Shown here piece by piece: positions 23,621-54,113 of a stretch of DNA of 64,000 nt. The stretch's first letter is position 1, and the number at the start of each line of letters is the position of its first letter. This stretch comes from Actinopolyspora lacussalsi (GTDB lineage: Bacteria > Actinomycetota > Actinomycetes > Mycobacteriales > Pseudonocardiaceae), in NCBI GenBank assembly GCA_030803735.1, contig JAURUC010000001.1:3303501-3367500 (forward strand). Direction: 5' to 3'. Under the pieces are notes generated by a model. The model saw only the letters and a program-made list of their open reading frames with translations. It did no database searches and had not been told where the DNA came from. Position numbers and translations under genes: made by a program.

Positions 23621-23777
23621 CTCCCACCACTCCCGCAAGCCGCACTCCCACCACTCCCGCGACCGGCACCGCCGCGGGTTCTCCGGTGCGGTTCTCGCGA
23701 GGACGGCCCCGACGTTGTGTAGGTCGCTACCCGATGTCGGGGCACCCGCAGCGAGAGCCGTGCCGGAGGTTCCGCCA
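23621..23777 (+). repeat. Compound intergenic hairpin element, copy A
   Basis: Two 24-bp-period repeats (CTCCCACCACTCCCGC at 23621 and 23645), then GCACCG/CGGTGC hairpin I, then nested hairpin II: outer stem CGGTTCTCGC (23689-23698) with GCGAGAGCCG (23751-23760) including one G-T wobble, inner stem GCCCCGAC (23706-23713) with GTCGGGGC (23736-23743), and tip GTAG/CTAC. It ends in GGTTCCGCCA, 38 bases before the stop of the minus-strand gene. It lacks the left palindrome seen in copies B, D and E. Confidence 0.85.
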
Positions 23778-23815
23778 AGACACCACCCAGGGGAATCGGC
23801 CCCCTTCTGCTCCTG

Positions 23816-24277
23816 TCAGGAGCGGTGGTGGTCGGTGATCCCCGCTCCGGGCCGCCAGGTGCGGATCAGCAACTGATCCCCGGCCACGCTGGTGTGGGTG
23901 ATCTCGTGCAACTCCCAGCGGAACATGTGGAAAGTGCCGGGCTCGTGCTGGATCTCGGCGGCGTAGGCGCGCAGCTCCTCGTCCTCGGAGACCTCGATCG
24001 CACGCCCGGCGACCTTCACGTCCCCCTCGGTCATCTCGCCGGGGTGGGCGTGCAGCGCTGCGCGCGGGTCACGCCGCAGGTCGAGTGCCTTCAGCGCGCG
24101 TGGCATCGACCCCATGGTCAGGTTCCCGGAGTGGAACTGGACCTCGGTGCCGCTGACCCGGGGTGATCCGTCGCCGCGGAGTGTCGCCAGGACGTGGTGC
24201 AGGTGCGCCTCGAAGCACTTCCGGACGGCCGCCGCGAACTCTGGTACTTCGGTTTCGAACTGTTGCCAATCGGTCAC
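23816..24277 (-). CDS. Pyridoxamine 5'-phosphate oxidase-like FMN/F420 protein
   Basis: A 153-residue split-barrel protein of the PNPOx-like superfamily: an N-terminal helix, then ATLRGDGSPRVSGTEVQF and a central strand set ending in VKVAGRAIEVSEDEE. Such proteins bind FMN or coenzyme F420 and act as small oxidoreductases; which cofactor is used cannot be told here. GTG start with poor ribosome site. Convergent with the dehydrogenase operon and followed by hairpin element A in its 3' region. Confidence 0.82.
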   Translation of the reverse strand: MTDWQQFETEVPEFAAAVRKCFEAHLHHVLATLRGDGSPRVSGTEVQFHSGNLTMGSMPRALKALDLRRDPRAALHAHPGEMTEGDVKVAGRAIEVSEDEELRAYAAEIQHEPGTFHMFRWELHEITHTSVAGDQLLIRTWRPGAGITDHHRS

Positions 24278-24382
24278 GCGGCCAACATCGCACGAACCCC
24301 CGACAACACGGTGTCGCCGCCGGATTCGGCGGTTCGGCGGCGCCCCGGCTCGTGGCGCGAGGTTCCCGACGTCGGAGCCGCC

Positions 24383-24907
24383 TCACTCCTCCTTGCGCCT
24401 GCGGCCACCGCGCTGTGCCGCGGCCCCGGCCCCGGCGACGGCCTGGGCAGCCGCGCTGGTGTGCTGCCCCTCGGCGGAGGTGTGCTGCCCGGAACCGTGC
24501 GCCCCCGAGTCGGCACCGTCACCGGCCTCGGCCGCCGTGGCCGACTGGCCGGAGGCTCCCTCGGACCGCTGTCCACGGGACTGCGAGGCCCCGTTCGACG
24601 TGGCCGAGGCGGACTTCTGCTGGGCGGCCCGCTGCGCTTCGGATTGGCGGGAGCCACCGGAGCCGCTCTCGGACTGCTCGGCCTGTCCGGTCGCGTTCTG
24701 CTGCTCGGAGCCCTGGTCTCCGCTCGCCGCGGCGGCCTGTGCCTGCTCGGTGGCCGGCTCGGCTTCCGGTGGCTGGGTGGCCGATGGGCCCTCCGGAAAG
24801 TCGAACTCGTGCGACTCGAAGTCGTGCACGTCGATCTCCGGCAGCTCGAGCTCGCTGTGGAGCTCCCCGAAGATCGGAGTTCCAGGGTCGGATGTCGCCT
24901 TGCTCAC
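24383..24907 (-). CDS. Low-complexity disordered protein, unknown
   Basis: A 174-residue protein. An acidic N-terminal segment (ELHSELELPEIDVHDFESHE) is followed by Gln/Ser/Ala/Gly-rich sequence with a near-repeat (GQHTSAEGQHTSA), ending in a basic RRRKEE tail. It has no domain I recognise and is probably disordered. GTG start with GGGAGGG nine bases before supports that it is a real gene; codon bias is normal. Function unknown. Confidence 0.6.
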   Translation of the reverse strand: MSKATSDPGTPIFGELHSELELPEIDVHDFESHEFDFPEGPSATQPPEAEPATEQAQAAAASGDQGSEQQNATGQAEQSESGSGGSRQSEAQRAAQQKSASATSNGASQSRGQRSEGASGQSATAAEAGDGADSGAHGSGQHTSAEGQHTSAAAQAVAGAGAAAQRGGRRRKEE

Positions 24908-25715
24908 CGCTTCGCCCTCCCAATCACTCTCGAAGCGAGCCGGGATACTGCCGGTCTCTCGGCGTACGACCGAGATCCCGACGTGGTGTACCCGAGCGTC
25001 GGCACCACGAATCCCCGACGGCGGTTCGTGGCACGCGGCCGACCCGAGGGCCGCCCGCGCCGATAAAACACAGGGGTGAACGGTCCTCGCAGGCGAAGCC
25101 GAGCAATCTCACCTCTTCAGGTGAGGTGCGTGCCGACTTCACCCGACCGCAACCCATCAGCATTCCAGAGAAACAAAGCGGAAACGGGCGACAATTCCGA
25201 ACCGTGGCAAAGGCCACGCACGGCTTGCGAGCTTGCTCACAGGGTCACCCCGTAACTCCACGGCACGGGCGCCCCCGCCGTGGAGTGACGCAGGATACGT
25301 AACGGGTAACCGCCCGGATGCCGGGACACTCCCGGTGCTGATCAGTACCGGGGTTCCTGCCAGGTGAGGTTGGTCGGACGTTGGCCGGTAGTGAGGAACT
25401 CGCGGTCACTCCTTGTCGCAACAGTGATCACTTACTGTGCGAAAAGGATGGCGTTCACCTCCGACAAATTCTTCGACAACCTTCGGTCCGCCCTACGCCC
25501 ACGACAACGGAGAAGGAGTCCCGAGCTCGCGATCAACCGGCATCGCGGCCAGGGGCTCGACTGGCGTCACGGCGCATCCGCGACGACCCAATCGCCAGGG
25601 ATCTCGTGCCTCGCTCGTACCGACGCGCGTCAACACCCGTCCCCGGCAGGGCTCGGGACGGGCACGCGGACCTCTTCCGGCGCGGTGACGGCACGCCGAC
25701 ACGTCAACTGCGGCG
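24908..25715. other. Long intergenic region with several hairpins
   Basis: About 800 bases without a supportable gene between two minus-strand genes. It has a clear hairpin CTCACCT-cttc-AGGTGAG (25108-25125), a 10-bp stem ACTCCACGGC (25255-25264) with 25277-25286, and smaller ones near 25320-25360 (CCGGGA/TCCCGG and CCGGT/ACCGG). They would lie in the 5' region of the low-complexity protein gene or the 3' region of the acyl-CoA dehydrogenase gene. I could not match them to a known riboswitch. Confidence 0.5.
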
Positions 25716-26924
25716 TCAGGGAATGTGCCGCCCCGAGACCGCCCTGGCCACCACCAGCTGCTGGATCTGCTCGGTGCCCTCGAAGATGTCGTAGATCTTG
25801 GCGTCGCGGTGCATCCGTTCCACCGGGTATTCGCGGGTGTAGCCGCTGCCACCGAGGATCTGGATGGCCCGCTCGGTGGCCCAGGTCGCGACCCGACCGG
25901 CCTTGAGCTTGGACATCGATCCCTCACCGGCGGTGAAGGGGATCTCGTTGCGGCCCATCCAGGCGGCACGCCAGACCAGCATGCGGGCCGCGTCGATCTC
26001 GGTACGCATGTCGGCGAGGGTGAACGCGATCCCCTGGTTGTCGATGATCGGGCGCCCGAATGTCTCCCGCTGGGTCGCGTACTCCAGGGCGTGCTCGTAG
26101 GCGGCCCGGGCGATGCCGATGGCCTGGGATCCGACGGTGGGGCGCGAGAGCTCGAAGGTGCGCATCGCCTGCGAGCTGGACTTGCCGCCCTCCCTGGCCC
26201 GCGCCAGCCGCTCGTCGAGCTTCTCCTTGCCACCCAGCAGGCAGCGGCCCGGCACCCGCACGTCGTCCAGGAACACGTCGGCGGTGTGCGAGGCGCGCAG
26301 CCCGTGCTTGCGGATCTTGCTCGGCGCGGACAGCCCGGGCGTACCGGGCGGGACCACGAAGGCCGCCTGACCGCGCGGCCCGAGCTCGGGGTCCACCACG
26401 GCCTGCACCACGTGCACGTTGGCGATCCCGCCGTTGGTCGCCCACGCCTTCTGCCCGTTGAGCACCCACTCGTCGGTGGCCTCGTCGTAGACGGCGCGGG
26501 TGCGCATCGCGGCGACGTCCGAACCCGCCTCGGGTTCGGAGGAGCAGAACGCGGCCACCTGGGGCTCGTCCACATCGCCGTAGCACTGCGGGACCCACTC
26601 GGCGAGCTGGTCCGGCGTGCCGGCGGAGAAGATTCCCGCCACCGCGAGCGTCGTACCGAAGATCGCCATCCCGATGCCGCCGTCGCCCCAGAACAGTTCC
26701 TCGTTGGCTATCGGCAGCGAGAGGCCGGTTTCGTCCGCCCAGAACGTCGCCAGCGTCTCGAAGCCGTAGAGGCCGACCTTGGCGGCCTCGGAGATGATCG
26801 GCCAGGGAGTTTCCTCCCGCTCGTCCCACTCCGCCGCGGCGGGGCGGATCTCCTTCTGGGCGAAGCCGTGTAACCAGTCGCGCAGTTCCTGGTGCTCTTC
26901 GGTGAGTTCCAGCGAGAAGCTCAT
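25716..26924 (-). CDS. Acyl-CoA dehydrogenase
   Basis: A 402-residue FAD flavoenzyme that introduces the alpha-beta double bond into acyl-CoA thioesters. The N-terminal helical domain, the FAD-binding segment AAFCSSEPEAGSD with LNGQKAWATNGG, and the C-terminal helical domain with the QILGGSGYTREYPVERM motif are all present. The catalytic base is the Glu in YDIFEGTEQ (near 382-385). GAGG precedes the ATG. Downstream of an SCP2 protein and near a divergent TetR regulator, it probably belongs to a lipid or acyl-CoA degradation unit. Confidence 0.95.
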   Translation of the reverse strand: MSFSLELTEEHQELRDWLHGFAQKEIRPAAAEWDEREETPWPIISEAAKVGLYGFETLATFWADETGLSLPIANEELFWGDGGIGMAIFGTTLAVAGIFSAGTPDQLAEWVPQCYGDVDEPQVAAFCSSEPEAGSDVAAMRTRAVYDEATDEWVLNGQKAWATNGGIANVHVVQAVVDPELGPRGQAAFVVPPGTPGLSAPSKIRKHGLRASHTADVFLDDVRVPGRCLLGGKEKLDERLARAREGGKSSSQAMRTFELSRPTVGSQAIGIARAAYEHALEYATQRETFGRPIIDNQGIAFTLADMRTEIDAARMLVWRAAWMGRNEIPFTAGEGSMSKLKAGRVATWATERAIQILGGSGYTREYPVERMHRDAKIYDIFEGTEQIQQLVVARAVSGRHIP

Positions 26925-27115
26925 GAGTTTTCCTCGGATGTCGTTGCTGGTGGTTCGTGGACGAGTCGGAAGGTGGACCCGGTTCCGACACGGCGGAGCC
27001 CGGGTTTCCTCCGGTGGACGCGTGTGGCGGCGGGACGGCCACGAGCGGATCTTCGGGACGTTCGGGGCGCCGGAAATGTCGGGGCCGCCGAGGGGGTCGG
27101 GCTCGGACTCGCCCG

Positions 27116-27706: not shown

Positions 27707-27722
27707 GTTGCCCTCCATTACC

Positions 27723-27750: not shown

Positions 27751-27792
27751 GATAGAACGGCAATACAACCCCCTGATCGATACTGTTCTACC

Positions 27793-29206: not shown

Positions 29207-29231
29207 ACGCACCGCACCCCGGTCCCGCTGA

Positions 29232-29975: not shown

Positions 29976-30189
29976 GGTGCTTCATGGCGCCAGACCGGGC
30001 TGTCGTACCGGTGACCGGCGGATGAAGCCGACATGACCTCCCGGAAAAACCCGCCCAGCGGGATTCACCAGGCTCCGATCGCTGGAAGTTTCGGTCTTCA
30101 GGGCGGAGAGGAAAGCGATCCCGAGTGCTGTTGGGTGACCACGCACCCACATGCTTACTCATGATCGCTAGTTGTGTAAAATGATCGGT

Positions 30190-31344
30190 ATGCGGACGGC
30201 GTATAAGTGCCGGGCCTACCCGGACTCGGACCAGGCGGCCCAGTTGGGTCGCACGTTCGGGTGCGTACGCCTCGTGTGGAACAAGACCCTCGCCCAGCGG
30301 CACCGCGCCTACCACGCGCACGGCACGAAAACGTCCTACACCGAGACCGACGCCGCCCTGTCGCGGTGGAAGAAGACTGAGGACCTGGGGTTCCTGTCCG
30401 AGGTCTCCAGCGTGCCGCTGCAACAGACCCTGCGGCATCAGCACACCGCATTCGCGAACTTCTTCGCCGGACGCGCCAAGTACCCGAGGTTCAAAAACCG
30501 CAACGGCAAACAGTCGGCGCACTACACCCGCTCCGCGTTCAAACTCCGCGACGGGCACCTGACGCTGGCCAAGCAGTCGGCGCCGCTGAACTTCGTGTGG
30601 TCCTGGGATGACGACACCCTCGCGAACCTCAACCCGACGATGGTGGTGGTCTCTCGCGAGCAGGACGGGCGCTGGTACGTGACGTTCGCCGTCGACACCG
30701 ACGACCCCGAATCCGCCGCGCCCACGGGCGAGGCCCTCGGCATCGACCTCGGCGTGAAGGACTTCGCGACGCTGTCCACTGGCGAGACCATCGCCAACCC
30801 CAAGCATCTGGACCGCAAGGAACGCACCCTCGCCCGCTACCAACGACAGATGGCCCGCAAGCAGCGTGGCTCGAACAACCGACGCAAAGCCAAACGCAAG
30901 GTCGCCCGCGCGCACCGCAAGATCCGCCACGCCCGCGCCGACTTCCTGCACCGCACCACCACGAACCTCGTGCGACGTGCCGATGTCATCGCGATCGAAG
31001 ACCTCACCGTGTCCGGCATGACCAGCAGCGCGAAGGGCACCACCGACAAGCCCGGCCGCAACGTCAAAGCCAAGGCCGGGCTCAACCGGGCCGTCATGGA
31101 CGCCGCGCTGGGCGAGTTCCGGCGCCAGCTGGAATACAAGACCACCCGCGCGGGCAAGACCCTGGCCGTCGTGGACCGGTGGTACCCGTCGTCGAAGACG
31201 TGCTCCGCGTGCGGACACCTGCTGCCGAGCTTGACACTCTCCACGCGGGCATGGACGTGCCCCGACTGCGGCACCCGGCACGACCGGGACCACAACGCCG
31301 CGAAGAACATCCTTGCCGCTGGTCGAGCGGTAGCCGGGCCATAG
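30190..31344 (+). CDS. tnpB: TnpB RNA-guided nuclease
   Basis: A 384-residue TnpB, full length. The RuvC-like catalytic triad is intact: Asp186 in GIDLGVKD, Glu270 in IAIEDL, Asp367 in HDRDHN. The zinc finger has CSAC (338-341) and CPDC (357-360). TnpB proteins are RNA-guided DNA nucleases that use a guide transcribed from the element's right end and help it persist; they are ancestors of Cas12. The ATG giving MRTAYKCRAYP is chosen because this is how the family begins. No TnpA is present, so movement would need one in trans. Confidence 0.95.
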   Translation: MRTAYKCRAYPDSDQAAQLGRTFGCVRLVWNKTLAQRHRAYHAHGTKTSYTETDAALSRWKKTEDLGFLSEVSSVPLQQTLRHQHTAFANFFAGRAKYPRFKNRNGKQSAHYTRSAFKLRDGHLTLAKQSAPLNFVWSWDDDTLANLNPTMVVVSREQDGRWYVTFAVDTDDPESAAPTGEALGIDLGVKDFATLSTGETIANPKHLDRKERTLARYQRQMARKQRGSNNRRKAKRKVARAHRKIRHARADFLHRTTTNLVRRADVIAIEDLTVSGMTSSAKGTTDKPGRNVKAKAGLNRAVMDAALGEFRRQLEYKTTRAGKTLAVVDRWYPSSKTCSACGHLLPSLTLSTRAWTCPDCGTRHDRDHNAAKNILAAGRAVAGP

Positions 31345-31474
31345 TCCGGCGAAGCCTGTGGAGCCGGTGTGAGTCCGCAAGGGTCTCCTCCCTTCGGCAG
31401 TCGGCTGTGAAGCAGGAACTACCGGGCGCGAGCCCGATGGGAATCCCCGCCCTTCAAGGCGGGGAGGAAGTCAA
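31345..31474 (+). ncRNA. Putative omega RNA (reRNA) scaffold and right end
   Basis: The 130 bases after tnpB contain several short stems (for example GTCCGC-aaggg and TCGGC/GCCGA-type pairs) and finish with the element's end hairpin at 31445-31464. In characterised TnpB elements the guide scaffold overlaps the gene's 3' end and this right end, and the guide is the flanking DNA, here starting near 31475. Boundaries are inferred. Confidence 0.55.
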
Positions 31475-31550
31475 CGAGTCAACACACCCGGACGGTGTCC
31501 GGTGCTGTCGCTGCCGTTCGGAGCGGTCCGGCCGCACCGGCGCGGCGTCG

Positions 31551-31771
31551 ATTTCTCGCGAAATCGCCGCGCCGCTTCGACGCGGTGCCGAACCCCCACC
31601 ATCCTCGCAGCCAGAGCTCCGACCACCCTCGCAGGCCGCACTCCGACCACCCTCGCGATCGGCACCGCCGCGGGTTCTCCCGTGCGGCTCTCACGAGGAA
31701 GGCCCGACGTTGTGTGGTAACTACCCGATGTCGGGCCTCCCGGAGCGAGAGCCGTGCGCGAGGTTCCGCCA
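31551..31771 (+). repeat. Compound intergenic hairpin element, copy B
   Basis: The most complete copy. Palindrome ATTTCTCGCGAAAT (31551-31564), 29-base spacer, three 24-bp-period repeats (about 31593, CTCCGACCACCCTCGC at 31617 and 31641), hairpin I, then hairpin II: outer CGGCTCTCAC (31685-31694) with GCGAGAGCCG (31745-31754, one A-C mismatch), inner GGCCCGAC (31701-31708) with GTCGGGCC (31730-31737), tip GTGG/CTAC. Ends 34 bases before the purC stop. Confidence 0.88.
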
Positions 31772-31805: not shown

Positions 31806-32690
31806 TTACGAAGGCCAGTTGGTGAGATCACGTCCGGTGATCCGCTCGTACGCCTCAACGTAGCGCGCCCTGGTCGCCACGACCACCTCGTCGGGCAGCG
31901 GGGGCGGCGGCACGTCGGAGGCGCGGTCCCAACCGGATTCCGGCGAGGTCAGCCAGTCCCGCACGTACTGCTTGTCGAAGGAGGGCTGTGACCTGCCGGG
32001 CGCGTACTCGTCGGCGGGCCAGTACCGCGAGGAGTCCGGGGTCAGCACCTCGTCGCCGAGCACCAGCGTGCCGTCGGCGGCGAGGCCGAACTCGAACTTG
32101 GTGTCGGCCAGGATCACCCCGCGCGTCCGTGCGTGCTCGGCCGCGCGCTCGTAGATCCGCAGCGTGGTGTCCCGCAGCTGCTCGGCACGCTCGCGGCCGA
32201 CCTTGTCCACCACCGCGTCCAGGCTCACGTTCTCGTCGTGCTCGCCCAGCTCCGCCTTGGTGGCCGGTGTGAAGATCGGTTCCGGCAGTCGCGAGGACTC
32301 GGTGAGGCCGTCGGGCAGCGGCACCCCGCAGACGCTGCCGGTCTCGCGGTACTCGACGAGTCCGGAACCGCTCAGGTAGCCGCGCGCGACGCACTCGACG
32401 GGCAGCATCTCCAGCTTGCGCACCAGCAGCGCCCTGCCGCGCACCTCGTCCGGGATGCGCGGGTCGTCGGCGGCGACGAGGTGGGAGTCGATCAGATCGC
32501 CGAGCAGTTCGAACCAGAACACGCTCATGGCGGTCAGTACCCGACCCTTGTCCGGGATCGGCGTCTCCAACACGTGATCGTAGGCGGAAACACGGTCGGA
32601 GGCGACCATCAGCAGATGCTCGTCGTCGACCTCGTAGAGCTCACGGACCTTGCCCGCTGCCACCGGACGGTATTCGGAAAGCGCGACCAC
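31806..32690 (-). CDS. purC: SAICAR synthase
   Basis: A 294-residue phosphoribosylaminoimidazole-succinocarboxamide synthase, ATP-dependent ligase of the eighth step of IMP synthesis (CAIR + Asp). Family motifs: [27 protein letters not shown], the phosphoribosyl-binding [13 protein letters not shown], and ADTKFEFG with [13 protein letters not shown]. The GTG giving [14 protein letters not shown] is chosen as it matches the family N terminus; the ribosome site is weak and an upstream start is possible. It is divergent from tenA and its 3' region holds hairpin element B. Confidence 0.95.
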
Positions 32691-32832
32691 GGTTCGGAAT
32701 TCTGCCTCACCCGAACGATCGGTGGGCCGACGGGCCACGGTTGCGGCAGAGTACGGGTGGGACCGAGTCACCGCGTTCCCCGCGACGACCGCATGCCGGT
32801 GTCACGGGGGAGAGCCGACCAGGAGGCCGAGC

Positions 32833-40884: not shown

Positions 40885-41009
40885 AACCCTGCCCATCGGC
40901 ACCGCCGCGGGCTCTCCCGTGCGGCTCTCGCGAGGACGCCGGAGACGTTGTGTAGTACCTACCCGATGTCTCCGGACCCGCAGCGAGAGCCGTGCGAGAG
41001 GTTCCGCCA
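40885..41009 (+). repeat. Compound intergenic hairpin element, copy C
   Basis: Shorter copy without the palindrome and with one degenerate 24-bp unit. Hairpin II is intact: outer CGGCTCTCGC (40922-40931) with GCGAGAGCCG (40983-40992); inner CCGGAGAC (40939-40946) with GTCTCCGG (40968-40975); tip GTAG-tac-CTAC. The inner stem differs from the other copies at several positions on both arms, keeping pairing. Ends 39 bases before the purD stop. Confidence 0.88.
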
Positions 41010-41047: not shown

Positions 41048-42331
41048 CTAGTTCCGGGTGAGGTCACCGTTTCCGGGGGCGGCGATCTCACCGCGCGCGG
41101 CACGCGCCGCGATGTCGGTGCGGTAGTGCGCACCGGGCAGGTGCACACCGTCCACGCGCCGGTAGACCTCCGCACGCGCGGACTCCAGGTCCTCGCCCGT
41201 GGCGACCACCGACAACACCCGCCCTCCGGCGGCGAGCACGGCACCGTCCTCTTCTCTCCTGCGGGTGCCGGAGTGCAGCACACCGGGGCCGTCGCTGCCG
41301 CCGATCACGTCGTCCACGCGCGGCCTGCCCGGATAGCCCTCGGCCGCCAGGATCACGGTCACCGCCGCGCCGGGCTCCCACTCGGGCTCGGGTGCCTCGG
41401 CCAGTTCACCGTTGGCGACGGCGGCGAGCAGGGTCGACAGCGGGGTGCGGAGCAGGGCCAGGATCGCCTGCGTCTCGGGATCACCGAAGCGGCAGTTGAA
41501 CTCGATGACCTGCGGACCGTTCGAGGTCAGCGCCAGCCCGGCGTAGAGCAGGCCGGAGTAGGGGGTGCCGCGCCGCGCCAACTCCTCCACCGTGGGGCGC
41601 ACGACGGTGTCGACGACCTCGTCGACCATTCCCTCCGGAGCCCAGGGCAGCGGGGCATAGGCCCCCATCCCGCCGGTGTTGGGGCCCGCGTCGCCGTCAC
41701 CGACCCGCTTGAAGTCCTGCGCGGGCAGCAACGGACGCACCGTGGTGCCGTCGACCAGGCACAGCAACGACGCCTCCGGGCCGTCCAGGAACGACTCCAG
41801 CAGCACCGGGTGGCCATCCTCCAACAACTTCAGGGCGTGGGCCCGGGCGGCGTCGAAGTCACTGGTGACGAGCACTCCCTTACCGCCCGCCAGCCCGTCG
41901 TCCTTGACCACCCAGGTGGGGCCGAAATTGACCAGCGCGGCATCCAGCTTCGCCGGGTTGTCCACGGTCTCGCTGTGCGCGGTCGGCACACCGGCCGAGA
42001 GCATCACGTCCTTGGCGAAGGCCTTCGAGCCCTCGATACGTGCCGCGGCTCTGGACGGCCCGAAGCAGGGGACGCCCGCCGCTCGAACCGCGTCGGCCGC
42101 GCCCACGACCAGCGGGGTCTCGGGGCCGAACACCACCAGGTCGGCCCACCACTTCACCGCGAGTTCGGCGATCTCATCAGGGGCGGCGACATCCACCGAG
42201 TACGACTCGGCGATCGTCGCGGTGCCCGCGTTACCGGGAGCACACGCCAGGGCCGTCACCTCCGGGTCGCGGGAGAGCGCCCGCAGGATCGCGTGTTCCC
42301 TGCCGCCTGCACCAATCACGAGGATGCGCAC
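41048..42331 (-). CDS. purD: Phosphoribosylamine-glycine ligase
   Basis: A 427-residue GAR synthetase, ATP-grasp ligase of the second step of purine synthesis. N-terminal [10 protein letters not shown] (5-14), ATP-grasp segment [15 protein letters not shown], metal-binding [12 protein letters not shown], and [13 protein letters not shown] in the C-terminal domain. The GTG giving [14 protein letters not shown] is chosen because the family begins there; a longer frame upstream has no site. Its 3' region carries hairpin element C; divergent from the GDPD gene. Confidence 0.96.
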
Positions 42332-42486
42332 GCCCCGCAGCGTAAAGCTTTGCCGGAGCCGCCACGTCCCGCCCCCCGCCGAGAAGTGGCCGACACGACG
42401 TCGAGCGTTCACCCCGAGTTCGCCGCGAGGTGCGCGACCGTGATCGACGATCACCCCGAACATACTCACTGACGGGAGAGGTTCAC

Positions 42487-43641
42487 GTGCCACGGAACCG
42501 GATACGCGAGATCGCGGTACTTTGTACGCTCACCTTCGCGGCGCTGCCCGTCATGGGCGTGTCCTCGGTCGCCGAACCGGACACCACCGCCCCGAGGCAT
42601 TCGGACGCGAAACGACACCCGAAGGGGGACGAGACCATCCGGGTCTTCGGTCACCGGGGAGCACCGGGCCATCGCCCGGAACACACCCTCGCCTCCTACG
42701 AGCTGGCGGCGCGAATGGGCGCCGACTACATCGAGCCCGATCTCGTTCCCACCAAGGACGGGGTGCTCGTCGCCAGGCACGAGAACGAGATCAGCGGCAC
42801 CACCGACGTGGCCGAGCACCCCGAGTTCGCGGACCGCAGGACGACCAAGGTCATCGACGGGGAACGGGTGACCGGCTGGTTCACCGAGGACTTCACCCTG
42901 GCCGAACTCAAGACGCTGCGGGCGACCGAACGGCTCCCCGAGCTCAGGCAGCACAACACCGTCTTCGACGGCCGGTTCGAGATCCCCACTTTCCAGGAGA
43001 TCATCGATCTCGAGCGGGAACTGTCCCGCGAGCTGGGCAGGCGGATCGGAATCGCGCCGGAGATCAAGCATCCGAGCTACTTCGATTCCGTGGGACTGGG
43101 CATGGAGCCCGACGTGGTGCGGGCCCTCGACCGCAACGGGCTCAACCACCCGCACGCGAAGGTGGCGGTGCAGTCCTTCGAGGTCGGCAACCTGCGGTGG
43201 CTGGACCGGCGGTTGCGCGTCGATCTGGTGCAGCTGGTGTGGAGCAGCGGCGCGCCGCGCGACTTCGTCGAGAGCGGTGATCCGCGCGAGTACGCCGACA
43301 TGGTGACCCCTGCCGGACTGCGCGAGATGTCCGAGTACGCCGACTGGGTGGCACCGGTCACGACCATGATCCTGCCCGAGGACGAGAACGGTCGCCTCAC
43401 CGAGCCGACGAGCCTGGTGGCGCACGCCCACGAGGCAGGCCTGCGGGTGGTCACTTACACGGTGCGGGCCGAGAACGCCTTCCTGCCCGCGGAGTTCCGA
43501 AGCTCCGACGTGGACGGCGCCTACGGCGACGTGTTCGGCTTCCTCCGGAAGTTGTTCGCCGCGGGCGTGGATGCCGTGTTCGCCGATCAGCCCGATCTCG
43601 CCCACCACGCACGGGAGTCGTGGGGAACTCATCCGGCGTAG
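42487..43641 (+). CDS. Secreted glycerophosphodiester phosphodiesterase
   Basis: A 384-residue exported GDPD. A signal peptide covers about residues 1-28 ([20 protein letters not shown]). The TIM-barrel motifs follow: [14 protein letters not shown] (catalytic His), [19 protein letters not shown] (metal Glu/Asp and second His), and PEIKHPSYF. It resembles GlpQ and hydrolyses glycerophosphodiesters or teichoic-acid-like polymers outside the cell, giving glycerol-3-phosphate. GTG start after GGAGAGG. Confidence 0.93.
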
Positions 43642-43687: not shown

Positions 43688-43725
43688 CGACGCCCCCGCA
43701 CGGCGGTGCGACCCCAGTTCCGTCA

Positions 43726-43926
43726 ATTTCTCGCGAAATCGCCGGGCGGTGGGACGGCGCGGCGCCGAGCTCCCACCACTCCCGCGAGCCGAACTCCCAC
43801 CGCTTAAGCAATCGGCGCCGCCGCGGGTTCTCCGGTGCGGCTCTCGCGAGGAAGGCCCCGACGTGGCGTAGTGACTACCCGATGTCGGGCCTCCCCGGAG
43901 CGAGGGCCGTGCGCGAGGTTCCGTCA
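43726..43926 (+). repeat. Compound intergenic hairpin element, copy D
   Basis: Palindrome (43726-43739), 30-base spacer, two 24-bp-period repeats (43770, 43794), hairpin I GCGCCG/CGGTGC with a G-T wobble, hairpin II outer CGGCTCTCGC (43838-43847) with GCGAGGGCCG (43900-43909, one wobble), inner GGCCcCGAC (43854-43862) with GTCGGGCC (43884-43891, one bulge), tip GTAG-tga-CTAC. Ends 38 bases before the purA stop. Confidence 0.88.
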
Positions 43927-43963: not shown

Positions 43964-45250
43964 CTATGCCATCTGGTGGCGCACGATGGTCTGATCCCGC
44001 CCGGGACCGACCCCGATCGCCGAGATCCGCGCCTGGGCGAGCTCCTCCAGCCGCTCGATGTAGGCACGGGCGTTGGCAGGCAGGTCCTCGAAGGTGCGCG
44101 CCCCGCTGATGTCCTCGCGCCAGCCGGGCATCTCCTCGTAGACCGGCACGGCGTGGTGCACACCGGTCTGGGTCATCGGCATCTCGGAGGTGCGCATCCC
44201 GTCCACGTCGTAGGCCACGCAGACCGGCACCGTCTCGAGTCCGGAGAGCACGTCCAGCTTGGTCAGGAAGTAGTCGGTGATGCCGTTGACCCTGGTCGCG
44301 TAACGCGCGATCACCGCGTCGAACCAGCCGGTGCGGCGGTCCCTGCCGGTGTTCACCCCGACCTCACCGCCGACCTTGCGCAGGTTCTCGCCCGCCTCGT
44401 CGGTGAGCTCGGTGGGGAACGGCCCCGCCCCGACACGGGTGGTGTAGGCCTTGATGATGCCGATCACCGAGTCGATCCTGCTCGGACCGATCCCCGCTCC
44501 GGCACAGGCACCACCGGCCGTGGGGTTGGAGGAGGTGACGAACGGGTAGGTGCCGTGGTCCACATCGAGCAGCGTGCCCTGCGACCCCTCCAGCAGCACC
44601 GTCTCGTTCCGGCTGAGTGCCTGGTCCAGCATCAGCTTCGTCTCCGCCACCCGGCCCGCGAACCGTTCGGCCTGCGCCAGCACCGTGTCGACGACCTCCT
44701 CGGGGTCCATCGCACGCCTGTTGTAGACCTTGACCAGCACCTGGTTCTTGTACTCCAGGGCGGCCTCGACCTTCTGCCGGAGGATCTTCTCGTCCAGCAC
44801 GTCCTGCGCCCGAACCCCGACCCGGGCGACCTTGTCCTGATAGCAGGGACCGATGCCCCGACCGGTGGTCCCGATGCGCTTCTTGCCGAGGTAACGCTCG
44901 GTGACCCGGTCCATCGCCACGTGGTAGGGCATCACCAGGTGCGCGTCGGCCGACAGCGAGAGCTTGGAGGTGTCCACGCCACGGGACTCCAGCCCGTCCA
45001 GCTCCTCCAGCAGGGCCTCCGGGCTGACCACCACACCGTTGCCGATGACGTTGTGCACCTCCGGGCTGAGGATCCCCGAGGGGATCAACTTCAGCGCGAA
45101 GTCCTGCCCGTCCGGCAAAACCACCGTGTGACCCGCGTTGTTGCCACCCTGGTAGCGGACAACCCACTGCGCCTGCTCACCGAGCAGGTCGGTCGCCTTA
45201 CCCTTTCCCTCGTCACCCCACTGGGCGCCGATCAACACGATTGCCGGCAT
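43964..45250 (-). CDS. purA: Adenylosuccinate synthetase
   Basis: A 428-residue GTP-dependent ligase making adenylosuccinate from IMP and Asp. The P-loop GDEGKGK is at 12-18, followed by [21 protein letters not shown], and the C-terminal guanine-binding [10 protein letters not shown]. The ATG with GGAG seven bases before is selected. Divergent from a conserved unknown gene; its 3' region carries hairpin element D. Confidence 0.97.
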
Positions 45251-45395
45251 GTGAAACTCCAACCTGTCACTGGAGGCGGTCTGTGCAACTGGTAACGGCG
45301 GGTCATCGCTGTCGGTGGCCACGGGTGCGCCGCCACACCGAGGAAGGCCCGGCACCTGCGAATGCCGATCGATCAGGGTAAACCAGGAGCGTAAC

Positions 45396-46100
45396 GTGAC
45401 TACCACCGCACTATCCTGCGGAAACATCGAACGCGAAGCACGCCCGGCCCGTGCCGACGTGCGGTGGTTCGACCTACCGCCCCAGCCGTCACGCACCGAC
45501 GTGGACCCGATACTCCTCGAGGCCGAAGGCCGCGTGGTTGTGCACGGTACGGATGCGGATCTGGCCGCCGTGGTGCTGCGGCTGCTGCGTAAGAATCTAC
45601 TAGCGGAGCTGTCCGTGGGCTACGTCCCGGTCACCCGTTCGCCCGCGAGCTCGGTGTGGTCCCTCCCGGTCGGGGAGTTCGACACGGCGCTGGCGGCACC
45701 GGCGAGGGCCACTCCGCTGATCAGGGACGACTCCGGCGGTGTGCTGCTGGGGCGCGGCGCGATCACACCGATGACCGGTCAGGTGTACTGCGACGACCAG
45801 CGCATGCTGCACGGTTCGGCACGCTCGGTCGAGGTATTCCCCGATCCGGACGCGCCGCCGCTGAGCGAGCCCACCGACGACCCGCTCACCACCCAACCCG
45901 CACCGGTCACGACCGGCCTGGTGACCGTGGTGACCAGGCGGAAACTGCTGTGGCAGCGAAGCGAATCGGCACGTGGCCGCGCGATGCAGGCCAGTTTCGA
46001 GGAGACCACGGTCCATCGGGACGGGGTGGCGCATCCCCGGCCGCTGCACCGCTGTGCCTGGTACCGGCACACCCGGGACCTGCTGCTCGCCCGCCCGTGA
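45396..46100 (+). CDS. Conserved actinobacterial protein, unknown
   Basis: A 234-residue protein without signal or transmembrane segment. It has a central [31 protein letters not shown] element (in parts, near 50-80) and [20 protein letters not shown] near 125-145. The layout (acidic start, Val-rich strands, basic end) gives no family I can name with certainty. GTG start after CAGGAG. Divergent from purA, so it may share a promoter region with it. Confidence 0.75.
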
Positions 46101-49400: not shown

Positions 49401-49404
49401 TCGA

Positions 49405-50190: not shown

Positions 50191-51011
50191 TCACGCCAGC
50201 GACAAAAGACACAAGACAATCAACTCAGGAAAAATCCAGCAATTTGGATAACATTTTTATTATTCGCGAAAATTCGTGTTTTCGCGACACATCCAACTCT
50301 TTTTCACGTAGCAACAGAAAACGAACACTGACCCAATGACCTCACCTATGGGCGCCCCACGGGGACGGTCGCCGCAGGGTTCCGGGACGTAGTCGGCGAC
50401 GGGTCGCCCCGGCCCTCTGCAACGGGATCGCCAACCACAACGACATCCGGGGCGTGCTCCACCACTGATCCCGAAGTCGACTGATGAGCTCGGCCAGTTC
50501 AGTACGGTTGGAATGCGACTACCGGTATGACATCGACCGGCGATCGGTCAGCACGGCATCGTCCCCATAGCAGCCACGTGTACACGCGCCGTTGGAATGC
50601 ACCACCGAGTTCGAACGCATTCGGTCACGGTGAACTCACCGACATCAACGTGTGAGAGCTGGACACAACGGCGCAACGGTGTCCACGGGATGTTAGCGGA
50701 TATCTGTATCCGGATCTCCTGGATGCAGCGGAGGTAGCGACCCCATCCGCAGCGAGCCCCGCAAGAGGAGCGCGATCAACCAAGGGCTCTTCCACCGAGC
50801 TCCGGGGCAACAACAGCAACAGCGGCCGAATGAGGAGACGAGAGGCTGTGCGAGGTCTCGTGCTCCGGTCTCGGGGATCGGCCTGTTCGGTCCGAATCAT
50901 CGGTGTCATTCGACGCGCCCGACGTCGAAGCGGCCTCGTACTCGGCCCGGCCACCCCCGAGAGGCCTACACGGCTCCCGGGGACGACCGACCCGAGGAGC
51001 TCCAGCCGAGC
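50191..51011. other. Long intergenic region, AT-rich then GC-rich
   Basis: The AT-rich tract runs to about 50340, after which composition returns to the local norm. No reading frame with convincing codon bias, no repeat element and no tRNA were found. The AT-rich half and its sharp edge suggest that the secreted-protein cassette was acquired. The GC-rich half (50340-51011) may hold decayed coding sequence. Confidence 0.45.
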
Positions 51012-51293
51012 TCAGCCGAGCCAGCTCCCGGCGACCGCTTTCCACTCCCGAACGGTGGTCTCGGCCAGCACGCCCTCCTTGGCGTAGGGGTCCTCGGCCA
51101 GGATGCGGTCGAGTTCGGCACGGTCGGTGGTCTCGTAGACCAGCATCGCGCCGTCACCGTCGACGAACGGTCCACCGGCCAGCAGCACCCCTCGGTCCGA
51201 GAGGGCCTTGGAGTAGTCCCGGTGCTCCGGGCGTACCCGTTCGAGCAGTTCACGGTCCTCGCCGTATCGGATGTGCACGACGAAAGTGGCCAT
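51012..51293 (-). CDS. YciI-family protein
   Basis: A 93-residue YCII-related protein, a ferredoxin-like dimeric fold: TFVVHIRYGEDRELLERVRPEHRDYSK (in parts), GGPFVDGDGAMLVYE with the conserved Asp, DRILAEDPYAKEGVL, and a final VREW. The His-Asp pair typical of the family is present. Function unknown. The ATG with GGTGG just before is chosen. Divergent from an ECF sigma gene; YciI-like genes are commonly next to ECF sigma factors in actinomycetes. Confidence 0.92.
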   Translation of the reverse strand: MATFVVHIRYGEDRELLERVRPEHRDYSKALSDRGVLLAGGPFVDGDGAMLVYETTDRAELDRILAEDPYAKEGVLAETTVREWKAVAGSWLG

Positions 51294-51389
51294 TTCCACC
51301 CTTTCTGACGATGTGTTGGTCACAAGTTTCTTGCGGAGATTACCGGGTAAGCAGACGAACCGGGGGCTGAGCCGGTACCTTGCTGAATC

Positions 51390-51974
51390 GTGATCGGGGA
51401 CGGAACCAGCGGAGTGGAACGCTCGGTCGAGCGCACGCTCGGCCACCTACGTGCTCTGGACGGATCGGACGAACAGGACGATCAGCCCCAGGCACCAATG
51501 ACACTGGAGGACCTCTACCGCAACCAGCAGATGCGGATGGTGCGGCTCGCCATACTGCTCGTCGACGACCCGGCGACCGCCGAGGACGTGGTGCAGGAGG
51601 CGTTCACCGGGCTGTATCGCAACTGGTCGCAGCTGCGGGACTCCAAGGCCGCCGTGGGATACCTGCGCACGGCAGTGGTGAACGGCAGCCGATCGGTGCT
51701 GCGACGGCGCAAGACCGCACGCGAGTACCAGCCGCCGCACCAGCCCGACGCGCGTTCCGCCGAGTCACTGGCGATGCTCTCCAGCGAGCACCAGGCGATC
51801 GTGGCCGCGCTGGGACATCTGCCCCGGCGGCAGCGCGAGGTGCTGGTACTGCGCTACTACGGAAACATGTCGGAGGGCGAGATCGCCGAGGCGACCGGCG
51901 TGTCCAAGGGGACGGTGAAATCCACGGCCAGCCGGGCGCTCGAAGCGCTGCAGAAGCAGCTCGGCAACGCCTGA
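51390..51974 (+). CDS. ECF sigma factor, SigE-family, orphan
   Basis: A 194-residue ECF sigma factor: an acidic N-terminal extension of about 35 residues, region 2 (LYRNQQMRMVRLAILLVDD with DVVQEAFTGLYRNW) and region 4 HTH (LRYYGNMSEGEIAEATGVSKGTVKSTASR in parts). The GTG start appears leaderless; an internal ATG before LEDLYRNQQ is possible. No anti-sigma gene follows, in contrast to the other ECF locus at 36.5-37.7 kb. Confidence 0.93.
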   Translation: MIGDGTSGVERSVERTLGHLRALDGSDEQDDQPQAPMTLEDLYRNQQMRMVRLAILLVDDPATAEDVVQEAFTGLYRNWSQLRDSKAAVGYLRTAVVNGSRSVLRRRKTAREYQPPHQPDARSAESLAMLSSEHQAIVAALGHLPRRQREVLVLRYYGNMSEGEIAEATGVSKGTVKSTASRALEALQKQLGNA

Positions 51975-52241
51975 CCGGAAGTTCCGCACCTCGGCTCGCT
52001 CGACGACGTGAGCGGCGGAGCCTCCCGCAGGCTCTCACCCGCGGGTGTCCCGGTCTCGGGTGGCGTTCCGCACCACGTCGGGGCCGTCCCCCGCGGGAGC
52101 GTACGCGGACATCCGGGCCGCGTGCGTGGTTTCGGCCCTGATGCCGCCAGCTCGTCACGTTTCGTGTCAGCACGATCACCGGTTGAATCGATTCACTTCG
52201 CCGATTGCCCCGAAAGGGCGGCACACACCACGTCTCCGACA

Positions 52242-52257
52242 GGTGGTGTAGACCAAA
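52242..52257 (+). promoter_or_regulatory. DasR-type (dre) operator before nagA
   Basis: GGTGGTGTAGACCAAA has the inverted TGGT-GTAG-ACCA core of the GntR-family DasR responsive element. It lies 111 bases before nagA, whose orthologues are DasR targets, released by glucosamine-6-phosphate. The rest of the 51975-52367 gap holds a fragment with GGCGGAGCCTCCC like the tail of the compound elements, and no gene. Confidence 0.68.
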
Positions 52258-52367
52258 GTAGGGTCGATGTCGCAGGATCGGATTAGCAACCCGAAACATT
52301 CGCCCGGCAACACGGGGCGACTCCAGCGGCACCGACCGCAGCCGCTCCTGGAAGGAACGCCGAGACT

Positions 52368-53546
52368 GTGAGCAACGAAGCAACCGAGCCGTCGCTGATC
52401 GGCGGGCGGATCGTCACCGACGAGGGAGCGCCGCGGGACGGCTGGATCCGCGTCGAGGAAGGACGGATCGCCGAGATCGGTGAAGGCCCCGCCCCCGGCG
52501 GACTGCGGCCGGAGCTCAGCGGCCACTGGATCGTGCCCGGATTCGTCGACATCCACTGCCACGGCGGAGGCGGCGGATCACTGACCAGCCGGGACAGGCG
52601 GCAGATCAGCACCGCCGTGGCCGCGCACCGCGCGCACGGCACTACGACGATGCTGGCCAGCCTGGTCACGGCCTCCGTACCACAGCTCCGGGAACAGATC
52701 GGCTCGCTGCTCGGACCGGCGCGCGAGGGACTGCTGGCCGGAATCCACCTGGAGGGCCCATTCCTCTCGGCGGTGCGGTGCGGCGCCCACGACACCGACA
52801 TGCTGCGCGCCCCCGATCCGGAAAGCGTCGCCGAACTGCTCGAAGCCGGCGAGGGCGAAGTCCGGATGGTCACGCTGGCACCGGAACTCGACGGTGCCGT
52901 CGAAGCGGTCAAACAGCTCGCCGAGGCCGGCGTGATAGCCGCCGTCGGTCACACCGACGCGGTGGCCGAGCAGGTGCGCCCGGCGATCGACGCCGGAGCC
53001 ACCGTGGCGACCCATCTGTTCAACGGGATGCGGCCGCTGCACCACCGCGAGCCGGGGCCGGTGGGCACCCTGCTGAACGACGAGCGGATCACCGTGGAGA
53101 TGATCTGCGACATGGTGCACCTGCACCCGACGGTGGCGCGGCTGGTCGCACGGCACGCGGGCCCCTCGCGCACTGTCGCGGTCACCGACGCGATCAGCGC
53201 CACGGAGGCGGGGGACGGGCACTACGAACTGGGCAGCCTGCCGCTGACCGTCACCAACGGTGAACCCAGGCTGGCGGACGGCTCACTGGCGGGCAGCACG
53301 CTGACAATGGACACCGCACTGCGCAACCTCGTCGAACGCTGCGGACTGAGCCTGCCGGAGGCGGTGGCGGCCTGTTCCACCAAACCGGCCGAGCTGCTGG
53401 GCCTGTCCGATCGGCTGGGTTCGATCCGCACCGGACTGGCCGCCGACCTCGTGGTACTGGACGAGCGGCTGCGGCCCGAGCACGTGCTCAAGGACGGGTC
53501 GGTGGTTCCGACGGCACCGGACGACACCGCCAGGTTGGTGGGATGA
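52368..53546 (+). CDS. nagA: N-acetylglucosamine-6-phosphate deacetylase
   Basis: A 392-residue amidohydrolase that deacetylates GlcNAc-6-P to GlcN-6-P, the DasR inducer. VDIHCHGGGG (His63, His65) begins the metal site, HLEGPFLS (127-134) gives the metal Glu, then GHTDAVAEQV, THLFNGMRPLHHREPG, and the catalytic Asp in AVTDAIS. Full length. GTG start. No nagB or transporter adjoins; regulation by the dre box upstream is likely. Confidence 0.96.
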   Translation: MSNEATEPSLIGGRIVTDEGAPRDGWIRVEEGRIAEIGEGPAPGGLRPELSGHWIVPGFVDIHCHGGGGGSLTSRDRRQISTAVAAHRAHGTTTMLASLVTASVPQLREQIGSLLGPAREGLLAGIHLEGPFLSAVRCGAHDTDMLRAPDPESVAELLEAGEGEVRMVTLAPELDGAVEAVKQLAEAGVIAAVGHTDAVAEQVRPAIDAGATVATHLFNGMRPLHHREPGPVGTLLNDERITVEMICDMVHLHPTVARLVARHAGPSRTVAVTDAISATEAGDGHYELGSLPLTVTNGEPRLADGSLAGSTLTMDTALRNLVERCGLSLPEAVAACSTKPAELLGLSDRLGSIRTGLAADLVVLDERLRPEHVLKDGSVVPTAPDDTARLVG

Positions 53547-53592
53547 ACACCACTCCCACACGGAAACCGCACGGATACCTACGCTGAAGGGC

Positions 53593-53820
53593 ATGAGTAC
53601 GTCCTCGACGGGTGGCGACCCGGATCCGGAACGGATGCTCTCCGCCGCGTTGCGCGCCCAGGCGACCGGCAACGGGAACGCGGAACCCGAATCCGCACCG
53701 AACCAGCGGCCGCCGCGGCAGCCGAAACCGCGGGGGCTGCCGGTGCTGGGTGTACTGCTCTACGCGCTGCTGCTGGGAATCCTCGTCGGCGGCATCGCGG
53801 GCATGATCTCACTGCAATGA
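53593..53820 (+). CDS. Small tail-anchored membrane protein
   Basis: A 75-residue protein: a disordered Pro/Gln/Arg-rich N-terminal 48 residues and one transmembrane helix at the end (GLPVLGVLLYALLLGILVGG, about 48-67). Follows nagA by 46 bases on the same strand. No known role. Confidence 0.75.
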   Translation: MSTSSTGGDPDPERMLSAALRAQATGNGNAEPESAPNQRPPRQPKPRGLPVLGVLLYALLLGILVGGIAGMISLQ

Positions 53821-53913
53821 GCTCGGTGCGGGACTCGGCAACGGAGCTTTGGCGGCACGACCGAGCTCCTGTCCCCGGGGACGCCACGGCGGCGACTCGC
53901 GGGGGGCTCGTCG

Positions 53914-54113
53914 AGTTCTCGCGAAATCGCCGCGCCACTTCGACGCGGAACCTAGCCCCGACCACCTCCGCAGGCCGCACTCCAACCACCCCCGCAGTCG
54001 GCGCCGCCGCGGGTTCTCCGGTGCGGCTCTCGCGAGGACGGTCCCGACGTCGTGTAGGTCGCTACCCGATGTCGGGGCCACCCGCAGCGAGAGCCGTGCG
54101 CGAGGTTCCGCCA
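53914..54113 (+). repeat. Compound intergenic hairpin element, copy E
   Basis: Left palindrome with one degenerate arm (GTTCTCGCGAAAT, 53914-53927), 28-base spacer, two 24-bp-period repeats (53956, 53980), hairpin I GCGCCG/CGGTGC, hairpin II outer CGGCTCTCGC (54024-54033) with GCGAGAGCCG (54087-54096), inner GGTCCCGAC (54040-54048) with GTCGGGGCC (54071-54079, one G-T wobble), tip GTAG-gtcg-CTAC. Ends 40 bases before the DUF368 stop. Confidence 0.88.

What the first reader, a model, noticed from the sequence alone, without database searches (positions are those of the whole stretch)
23621..54113. New-looking family of compound intergenic elements with a covarying long hairpin
Five copies (23621-23777, 31551-31771, 40885-41009, 43726-43926, 53914-54113) share one architecture: palindrome ATTTCTCGCGAAAT, about 30 bp of spacer, two or three 24-bp direct repeats, hairpin I, and a long nested hairpin II ending in GTAG/CTAC, then GGTTCCGCC. 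The inner stem of copy C (CCGGAGAC/GTCTCCGG) differs from the others (CCCGAC/GTCGGG type) on both arms, and wobble pairs replace Watson-Crick pairs in A, D and E. Pairing is kept while sequence changes, which points to selection on structure, as RNA or as a cruciform. Only the stem and the loop CTACCCGAT are strongly kept.
Basis: seen in the sequence. Interest (0 to 1): 0.78.

Follow-up and report, generated by a model that had tools for sequence, protein, structure and literature searches.

The report
Swappable hairpin cassettes behind genes
A family of about 104-nucleotide hairpins, kept in shape while their sequences change across many related bacteria, often sits at a nearly fixed distance behind the ends of genes and is swapped between sites like a cassette; what it does and what moves it are not yet known.

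Summary
The five copies are real. What is conserved is one 102-105 nt imperfect hairpin, not two. The window's genome (an Actinopolyspora) has 131 covariance-model matches; 39 of 150 genomes of its family, in 13 of 46 genera, have some. Rfam has no match. Across 54 copies from other genera 29 of 40 pairs change on both sides (377 cells against 106 in shuffles): the structure is under selection.

(2) It is anchored: in 86 of 127 copies a convergent gene's stop codon lies 25-50 nt past the hairpin; in the window 34-39 nt. (3) It behaves as a cassette: hairpins at least 99% alike sit in flanks no more alike than random pairs.

It fails the REPIN/RAYT test: 10 of 20 element-bearing genomes checked have no Y1 transposase match. 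No reverse transcriptase was found in the host. Best reading: a one-way RNA barrier guarding gene 3' ends, spread as a cassette by an unknown enzyme; function is inferred, not shown.

The parts
23620..23642 (+). 24-bp unit of copy A
   Evidence: pattern hit
23674..23777 (+). copy A, long hairpin (104 nt)
   Evidence: R1 117.7 bits; MFE -79.6, z -9.46; 38 nt to the stop of the convergent ORF 23816-24277
31550..31565 (.). palindrome of copy B
   Evidence: GATTTCTCGCGAAATC
31592..31662 (+). three 24-bp units of copy B
   Evidence: pattern hits at 31592, 31616 and 31640
31670..31771 (+). copy B, long hairpin (102 nt)
   Evidence: R1 99.6 bits; MFE -70.2; 34 nt to the stop of ORF 31806-32771
40907..41009 (+). 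copy C, long hairpin (103 nt), CCGGAGAC subfamily
   Evidence: R1 110.8 bits; MFE -69.7; 38 nt to the stop of ORF 41048-42493
43725..43740 (.). palindrome of copy D
   Evidence: AATTTCTCGCGAAATC
43769..43791 (+). 24-bp unit of copy D
   Evidence: pattern hit
43823..43926 (+). copy D, long hairpin (104 nt)
   Evidence: R1 88.8 bits; MFE -64.5; 37 nt to the stop of ORF 43964-45496
53913..53928 (.). imperfect palindrome of copy E
   Evidence: GAGTTCTCGCGAAATC
53955..54001 (+). two 24-bp units of copy E
   Evidence: pattern hits at 53955 and 53979
54009..54113 (+). copy E, long hairpin (105 nt)
   Evidence: R1 110.4 bits; MFE -77.4, minus strand -58.5; 39 nt to the stop of ORF 54153-55205
57445..57499 (-). 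half element: right arm only (model 49-104), not in the finding
   Evidence: nhmmer 30.7 bits; also at the orthologous place in G134
52014..52100 (-). degenerate copy (model 18-103), not in the finding
   Evidence: nhmmer 23.0 bits; copies at the orthologous place in G097, G134 and, complete, in G072

Best explanation
The element is a roughly 104-nt hairpin cassette that works as a folded single strand, most likely RNA, of the strand pointing at the 3' end of the neighbouring gene. It sits about 36 nt behind that gene's stop codon and probably acts as a one-way transcription barrier: polymerase coming from the other side (a convergent neighbour or antisense transcription) makes the strong hairpin and is released, or its RNA is trimmed, there, so the gene's 3' end is shielded and the convergent transcript gets its own end. 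The upstream palindrome, the C-rich 24-bp units and the tail belong to the landing module. Hairpins are exchanged between modules as cassettes by an unidentified recombination or transposition process. SHOWN: structure under selection, strand asymmetry, anchoring behind stop codons in most copies with context, cassette exchange, lineage distribution. INFERRED: that it is transcribed, that it stops transcription, and the enzyme.
For: Covariation at family level. Plus strand more stable in 149 of 149 genus copies and 58 of 59 other-genus copies; G-U 112 to A-C 15 at variable stem columns in a structure-guided alignment, 82 to 42 in a sequence-only alignment, 83 to 12 in strand-neutral folds of 59 other-genus copies. 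Anchoring: 86 of 127 G000 copies with context have a convergent stop 25-50 nt away, 37 of 60 other-genus loci likewise, and 7 of 11 half elements with context at 30-42 nt. A second hairpin family shows the same anchoring, 7 of 9 full copies at 28-43 nt. In G117, without a copy in the 80 kb compared, the orthologous sites A and D hold strong simple inverted repeats, seen by reading. In G038 one hairpin lies inverted between the tails of two convergent genes. Left 80 nt in G000: C 0.45, G 0.26, C>G in 122 of 126, rut-like. Cassette behaviour: 15 G000 pairs at least 99% alike in the hairpin have left and right flank identity 0.71 and 0.64 against 0.70 and 0.62 over all 7875 pairs; three G000 sites with unlike flanks carry an identical 101-nt hairpin, the same sequence as copies in G097, G134 and G328.
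Against: No transcript data. The fixed distance is to the gene that the plus strand is antisense to, and 45 of 127 copies lie in a '--' arrangement without a plus-strand gene just upstream, so the barrier would often have only pervasive antisense transcription to stop. No U-tract after the hairpin on the plus strand (mean 0.9 T in 12 nt, at most 3). 41 of 127 copies did not show the anchor with my gene caller. In G117 the sites B and E have spacers of about 43 and 16 nt without an evident inverted repeat, so the element does not always take the place of a terminator. Within the genus the strand-neutral G-T excess (220 to 103) shrinks to 59 to 53 when the outer 12 nt of each side are left out. 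Outside the genus the left flank is less C-rich (C 0.37, G 0.31). The second hairpin family shows no mean strand difference. Half elements that cannot fold into the hairpin keep the anchor, which the barrier idea does not need.
Confidence: 0.4

Rival explanations
1. A selfish, REPIN-like single-strand DNA element: the plus strand folds, a trans-acting transposase of unknown type cuts at CCGCC on both ends, and copies insert a little behind stop codons because that is harmless. No host function.
For: Hairpin moves without its flanks; identical copies at unrelated sites; GCACCGCC or a near variant just left of the hairpin and CCGCC at its right end in most listed flanks; turnover and loss between species; strand-specific folding also fits ssDNA; REPINs show a long hairpin with compensatory changes (PMC3116915, passages). 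Y1_Tnp matches are commoner in element-bearing genomes (10 of 20) than in those without (2 of 18).
Against: 10 of 20 element-bearing genomes, among them G013 with 120 matches and G101 with 81, have no Y1_Tnp match; of the four G000 matches, L151 and L152 read as ordinary tnpA beside tnpB; insertion at a fixed distance from stop codons is not explained; no precise empty hairpin site found in the sites compared.
Confidence: 0.33
2. A bidirectional terminator of the adjacent gene: it is simply the gene's own 3' hairpin, read on the minus strand, about 36 nt behind the stop codon.
For: Distance typical of a 3' hairpin (general knowledge); in the window only short inverted repeats, at A and C, lie between stop and hairpin (by eye); at sites A and D of G117 simple inverted repeats stand in its place; minus strand still folds at about -56 to -60 kcal/mol on average.
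Against: The strand that the gene would transcribe is the less stable one in 207 of 208 copies; T is sparse after the hairpin on that side too (mean 1.6 in 12 nt, at most 6); a plain terminator would not need a conserved internal loop across genera.
Confidence: 0.14
3. Passive relic: palindrome copies kept alike by ectopic gene conversion and by quasipalindrome correction during replication, without selection on a folded strand.
For: Hairpin exchange and inversion occur (L216 and the G038 site), which spreads matched arms without compensatory mutation.
Against: Correction would make perfect palindromes and be strand-symmetric; instead six mostly-wobble pairs and an A-C deficit are seen; internal-loop bases are kept across genera.
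Confidence: 0.07
4. A retroposed short RNA (target-primed reverse transcription): right end fixed behind the gene, left end variable.
For: 12 left-truncated hits against two right-truncated ones, one of them doubtful, in the G000 sample; orientation and fixed right end.
Against: No reverse transcriptase domain (PF00078) in G000, which carries identical copies; 6 of 12 left truncations begin at model positions 39-51, around the hairpin tip, where a reverse transcriptase has no reason to stop; deletion explains truncation where the left spacer is longer than the 36 nt on the right (G134 at site E, inference).
Confidence: 0.03

Closest known systems
REPIN / REP-RAYT elements
   Same: Interspersed long hairpins with conserved outer parts and compensatory changes, extragenic and often downstream of coding regions (PMC3116915 and PMC3733652, passages)
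   Different: One 104-nt hairpin with a conserved internal loop rather than two 20-40 bp REPs; anchored about 36 nt behind stop codons on the antisense strand; no Y1 transposase match in half of the element-bearing genomes tested
ERIC/IRU and NEMIS/Correia repeats
   Same: 107-155 bp intergenic repeats; ERIC is predicted to fold into one long stem-loop (PMC2229807 and PMC2267715, passages)
   Different: Those are listed with terminal inverted repeats, TA at the termini and target duplications; here the ends are GCGGG and CCGCC and no duplication was evident; strand-specific pairing and exchange of hairpins within fixed flanks were found here
IS200/IS605-derived non-autonomous elements
   Same: One active strand, structure-dependent recognition, no target duplication (general knowledge)
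   Different: No Y1_Tnp match in half of the element-bearing genomes tested; the whole element is the hairpin
Rho-dependent or hairpin-trimmed transcript ends
   Same: C-rich, G-poor stretch with a strong hairpin near the transcript end (general knowledge; composition)
   Different: Internal loop and ends kept in sequence across genera; orientation antisense to the anchored gene; no transcript data

Membership tests
REP/REPIN-RAYT | a Y1 (RAYT) transposase in the genome | tested here: not met
   PF01797: 10 of 20 element-bearing genomes without a match, including G013 (120 matches to the element) and G101 (81); 2 of 18 element-free genomes have one. The excess in bearing genomes is noted as a result against
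REP/REPIN-RAYT | GTAG or CGTC tag at the foot of a 20-40 bp palindrome | tested here: not met
   GTAG lies in the apical stem of the genus variant and is missing in part of the other genera; hairpin is 102-105 nt in the window; definition from PMC3733652 (listing and passages)
REP/REPIN-RAYT | long hairpin with compensatory changes | tested here: met
ERIC/NEMIS type MITE | terminal inverted repeats with TA termini and target duplication | tested here: inconclusive
   Ends are GCGGG...CCGCC, not TA; no duplication evident at filled and unfilled sites, but no clean empty site was available
known Rfam RNA family | covariance-model match | tested here: not met
   No match on the element at E<=5 in window 20000-56000 or at E<=1 in 20 other-genus loci
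intrinsic terminator | U-tract after the hairpin | tested here: not met
   mean 0.9 T of 12 nt on the plus strand (at most 3), 1.6 on the minus strand (at most 6), 126 G000 copies
Rho-dependent terminator | Rho-dependent 3' end | not testable with these tools
   only composition: C 0.45 against G 0.26 in the left 80 nt in G000, 0.37 against 0.31 outside the genus
retroelement (TPRT) | reverse transcriptase in the genome | tested here: not met
   PF00078: no match in G000; other genomes not searched

The most novel reading that the evidence does not exclude
A family-wide system of interchangeable 3'-end RNA cassettes: one-way insulators that face the ends of genes, recognised through a conserved internal loop, and kept in circulation by an unknown precise cassette-exchange or transposition activity that is neither RAYT/IS200 nor reverse-transcriptase based.
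Probability: 0.28. Interest if true: 0.82.

Novelty: new variant of a known kind. Interest (0 to 1): 0.62.

Why it matters
It is a class of bacterial hairpin repeats, not described in the papers that my searches listed, with unusually clear covariation, strand specificity and a nearly constant position behind stop codons. If the barrier reading is right, it shows a genome-wide way to shield gene ends from antisense transcription in high-GC bacteria. If the selfish reading is right, it points to a single-strand mobile system without the known transposases. Either way direct tests are possible: many natural variants, orthologous sites with and without it, and swapped hairpins in nearly identical flanks.

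Tried and rejected
Ideas dropped: (1) REPIN/RAYT or IS200 mobilisation as the sole mover: no Y1_Tnp match in half of the bearing genomes tested. (2) Retroposition: no RVT_1 match in G000. (3) Lagging-strand ssDNA insertion as cause of an orientation skew: the skew (G013: 8/25 against 30/8, p 5e-6; G101: 11/20 against 17/7, p 0.014; from the 71 and 55 copies that I entered by hand of 120 and 81 matches, origin assumed at the contig start) is what gene-anchored placement would give, and by my reasoning puts the plus strand on the leading template. (4) A conserved adjacent gene: 66 right-hand genes of G000 hit 118 Pfam families, none in more than 3. (5) Conservation at the same genes across genera: two cross-genus pairs in the right-gene comparison, L118/L162 and L020/L202; a looser tblastx of 24 loci adds L185/L162 and L182/L195 and some weaker ones. 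No expected number was computed, so this is open rather than rejected. (6) An autonomous version with a gene between the arms: apart from L300, cut at model position 70 and followed by a copy of the second hairpin family, no copy with the left arm alone was found. (7) Integron attC: ends do not read AAC...GTT (recalled definition; integrase not searched).

Literature: judged by titles and abstract starts, the listings hold no description of this repeat; two searches were not useful (in 46 'rayt' and 'rep' mostly matched other text). Four papers were seen as passages only; the words Saccharopolyspora and Streptomyces do not occur in the main text of PMC3733652 or PMC2267715. Absence from print is claimed only for these searches of an open-access library.

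Rows dropped: A1 holds 116 of the 143 distinct full copies, one left-out row being 142 nt long; 42 reverse-strand or overlapping matches of A2 were dropped before counting, and the 65 rows called non-genus there include L160 and L185, which lie in G117 of the same genus; A3 leaves out weak copies by its E-value limit, and L160, L181-L185, L194, L195, L216 and L219 were not given to that call; L219 was left out of the gene-context and folding sets and one copy over 125 nt of the folding; A4 holds 66 of the 94 right-hand genes. Gene positions come from a caller of my own based on third-position GC, not from annotation, so some orientations are wrong.

Changed on checking: the barrier reading went from 0.42 to 0.40, and two rivals rose by 0.01 each, because sites B and E in G117 show no inverted repeat in place of the element.
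Full report
WHAT IS THERE. The window lies in a 5.03-Mb single-contig genome (G000:C1:3303501-3367500). A relative labelled 'same species' (G097) has a contig of the same length (149,472) as NZ_FPAT01000013.1 of Actinopolyspora righensis, so the host is an Actinopolyspora close to that species (inference; NCBI lists it as A. lacussalsi subsp. righensis). All five reported copies exist. Folding gives one long imperfect hairpin per copy, from GCGGGTTCTC to GAGGTTCCGCC, with MFE -64.5 to -79.6 kcal/mol and z-scores -4.8 to -9.5. Upstream modules (palindrome, about 24-bp units) are present in some copies only. Two further copies in the window are not in the finding: a half element at 57445-57499 and a degenerate one at 52014-52100, both on the minus strand.

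HOW MANY. A covariance model R1 was built from 116 copies (A1). It gives 131 matches in G000 at E<=0.01, with 150 candidates scored. Of 150 genomes of the same family 39 have a match at E<=0.001, in 13 of 46 genera, the host genus included. Matches per genome run from 1 to over 100: G013 120, G101 81, G112 40, G035 39, G046 33, G012 29, G005 13 (at most 150 candidates scored each). A model R2 from 54 other-genus copies (A3) matches in 20 of 298 genomes of the order at E<=1e-4, all 20 in the same family, and in 2 of 296 genomes of the phylum: G000 itself and one weak match (G509, 38.3 bits), which I did not pursue beyond reading it. Both wide scans used stricter filters and scored few candidates per genome. 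Rfam 15 has no match on the element.

STRUCTURE UNDER SELECTION. Within the genus (A1) 97.7% of 4534 cells pair, 7 pairs change on both sides, and 114 such cells stand against 36.6 in shuffles. Outside the genus (A3) 94.8% of 2093 cells pair, 29 of 40 pairs change on both sides, 377 cells against 106.4 +/- 9.5 in shuffles and at most 83 in slid versions. A3 was fitted to the structure, which leans the counts towards it. The bases that stay are the outer stem and the internal loop GCGAGGACAG / GATCCCGCAGCG.

ONE STRAND. The plus strand folds better than its complement in 149 of 149 genus copies (mean -73.2 against -60.2) and 58 of 59 other-genus copies (-66.9 against -56.5). Six of 40 pairs are mostly wobbles in the genus. 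Because a structure-guided alignment favours G-U, I checked three ways: structure-guided 112 G-U to 15 A-C; sequence-only MAFFT 82 to 42; and folds without G-U pairs, which are strand-neutral, 83 to 12 in 59 other-genus copies and 220 to 103 in 124 G000 copies. Without the outer 12 nt on each side the family count is 64 to 11, but the G000 count is 59 to 53. A cruciform, which uses both strands, does not predict this; RNA or ssDNA does.

ANCHORED TO GENE ENDS. With my own gene caller, 127 of 128 full G000 copies have context; the right-hand gene is on the opposite strand in 106, and in 86 its stop codon is 25-50 nt from the hairpin. In 60 other-genus loci the right-hand gene is opposite in 51, with 37 at 25-50 nt. 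The five window copies are at 34-39 nt. Of 11 half elements with context, 7 have such a gene, all at 30-42 nt. A second hairpin family (seed from L226) has 9 full copies in the G000 sample; 8 have an opposite right-hand gene, 7 of them at 28-43 nt. Left neighbours in G000 are plus in 73 of 127 and minus in 53 of 127, summed. In G117, which has no copy in 80 kb, sites A and D hold simple strong inverted repeats, seen by reading the sequences; sites B and E have spacers of about 43 and 16 nt without one.

CASSETTE EXCHANGE. Over 7875 G000 pairs, hairpin identity is uncorrelated with right-flank identity (r = -0.015) and weakly correlated with left-flank identity (0.25); 15 pairs at least 99% alike in the hairpin have left and right flank identity 0.71 and 0.64 against means of 0.70 and 0.62. 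Three G000 sites carry an identical 101-nt hairpin in unlike flanks, and the same hairpin sequence occurs in G097, G134 and G328. Inheritance is seen too: in 85 ortholog pairs with right genes 95-100% alike the hairpins average 93.4% identity, against 86.8% between G000 copies. Among 45 deduplicated G000-versus-other ortholog pairs whose right gene is at least 97% identical, hairpins are under 90% alike in 9 and at least 97% alike in 15, and the 34-nt right tails are under 75% alike in 17 and at least 95% alike in 16. At site E the gene flanks of G000 and G097 are 99% alike but the inner stem is of another subfamily. At site A of G038 the hairpin is inverted between the tails of two convergent genes. 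So modules recombine at or near hairpin edges; this spreads matched arms together, and not every covarying pair in the genus is a separate compensatory event.

TRUNCATION. In the G000 sample 128 full, 12 left-truncated and 2 right-truncated hits were found, one of the latter doubtful. Six of the 12 left truncations begin at model positions 39-51, around the hairpin tip. Deletion may explain some (site E in G134 and G072, inference). An earlier count used mostly loci picked by a right-arm pattern and is biased.

ENZYME. The Y1 family (PF01797) matches in 10 of 20 element-bearing genomes and 2 of 18 without; G000 has four matches, of which L151 and L152 read as ordinary tnpA beside tnpB and L153 as a fragmentary one. 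The difference between bearing and free genomes stands in these numbers, but ten carriers, some with over 80 copies, have none. No reverse transcriptase domain in G000.

MECHANISM. The anatomy fits an RNA made from the strand that runs at a gene's 3' end: C-rich stretch (122 of 126 G000 copies with C>G), strong hairpin with a conserved internal loop, then about 36 nt to the stop codon of the gene it faces. I read it as a one-way barrier that keeps antisense transcription out of the gene and ends convergent transcripts. The fixed distance to the guarded gene, the orientation and the strand asymmetry follow from this; the frequent lack of an upstream plus-strand gene and the anchored half elements do not. 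The ssDNA selfish element is the main rival and the data do not separate the two decisively.

KNOWN KIND. It works like a REPIN or ERIC-type hairpin repeat, but the defining RAYT partner, tag and size of REPs were tested and not met; the TA ends of ERIC-type MITEs are not met and their target duplication could not be judged. I call it a new variant of interspersed hairpin repeats.

Noticed in passing
31351-31487 (+), behind the ORF 30172-31344: Sub-threshold HgcC match (30.6 bits, cut-off 50) right after a TnpB-like ORF, perhaps the right-end guide RNA of an IS605-type element (TnpB naming is recalled, the ORF was not scanned); a strong Sernc389 antisense RNA match (267.5 bits) lies at 30383-30971 (-) within the ORF.
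   Followed up: no
window 8109, 33553, 35141, 35213, 59860, 59926: The palindrome GATTTCTCGCGAAATC (up to 2 mismatches) also occurs away from the long hairpins, so it is a repeat of its own.
   Followed up: partly
L226, L230; G000 loci L306, L029, L284, L325, L300, L273, L024, L336, L305: A second hairpin family (GGTGCGTGAGTCGGATGCATTGC ... GCCGACTCACGTG) with the same apical GTAG/CTAC and the same 28-43 nt anchoring; plus strand more stable in 6 of 9 but equal on average (-54.7 both), 9 full copies in the G000 sample.
   Followed up: partly
L216:1501-1602: A copy whose outer arms have one orientation and whose inner hairpin has the other, as if the inside had flipped.
   Followed up: no
L176, L178, L179, L194: In genus g34, with one to three matches per genome, one copy is syntenic in four genomes beside a gene that reads as gatB in L179, so single copies can persist for long.
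   Followed up: partly
G000 genome, 0.015-1.30 Mb: None of the 131 matches lies in this 1.3-Mb stretch; the prevailing sign of the copies changes near 3.5 Mb, which may mark the replication origin.
   Followed up: no
window about 57500-57560: A near-perfect palindrome around CGTGGTTTCC/GGAAACCACG beside the half element, kept at the orthologous place in G097 and G134 and in altered form in G038, G072 and G117.
   Followed up: no
L015, L038, L063, L077, L123: A recurring composite: sequence of the second hairpin family or of other repeats, then a CAACAAC-like stretch, then the last third of the first hairpin, at five loci.
   Followed up: no
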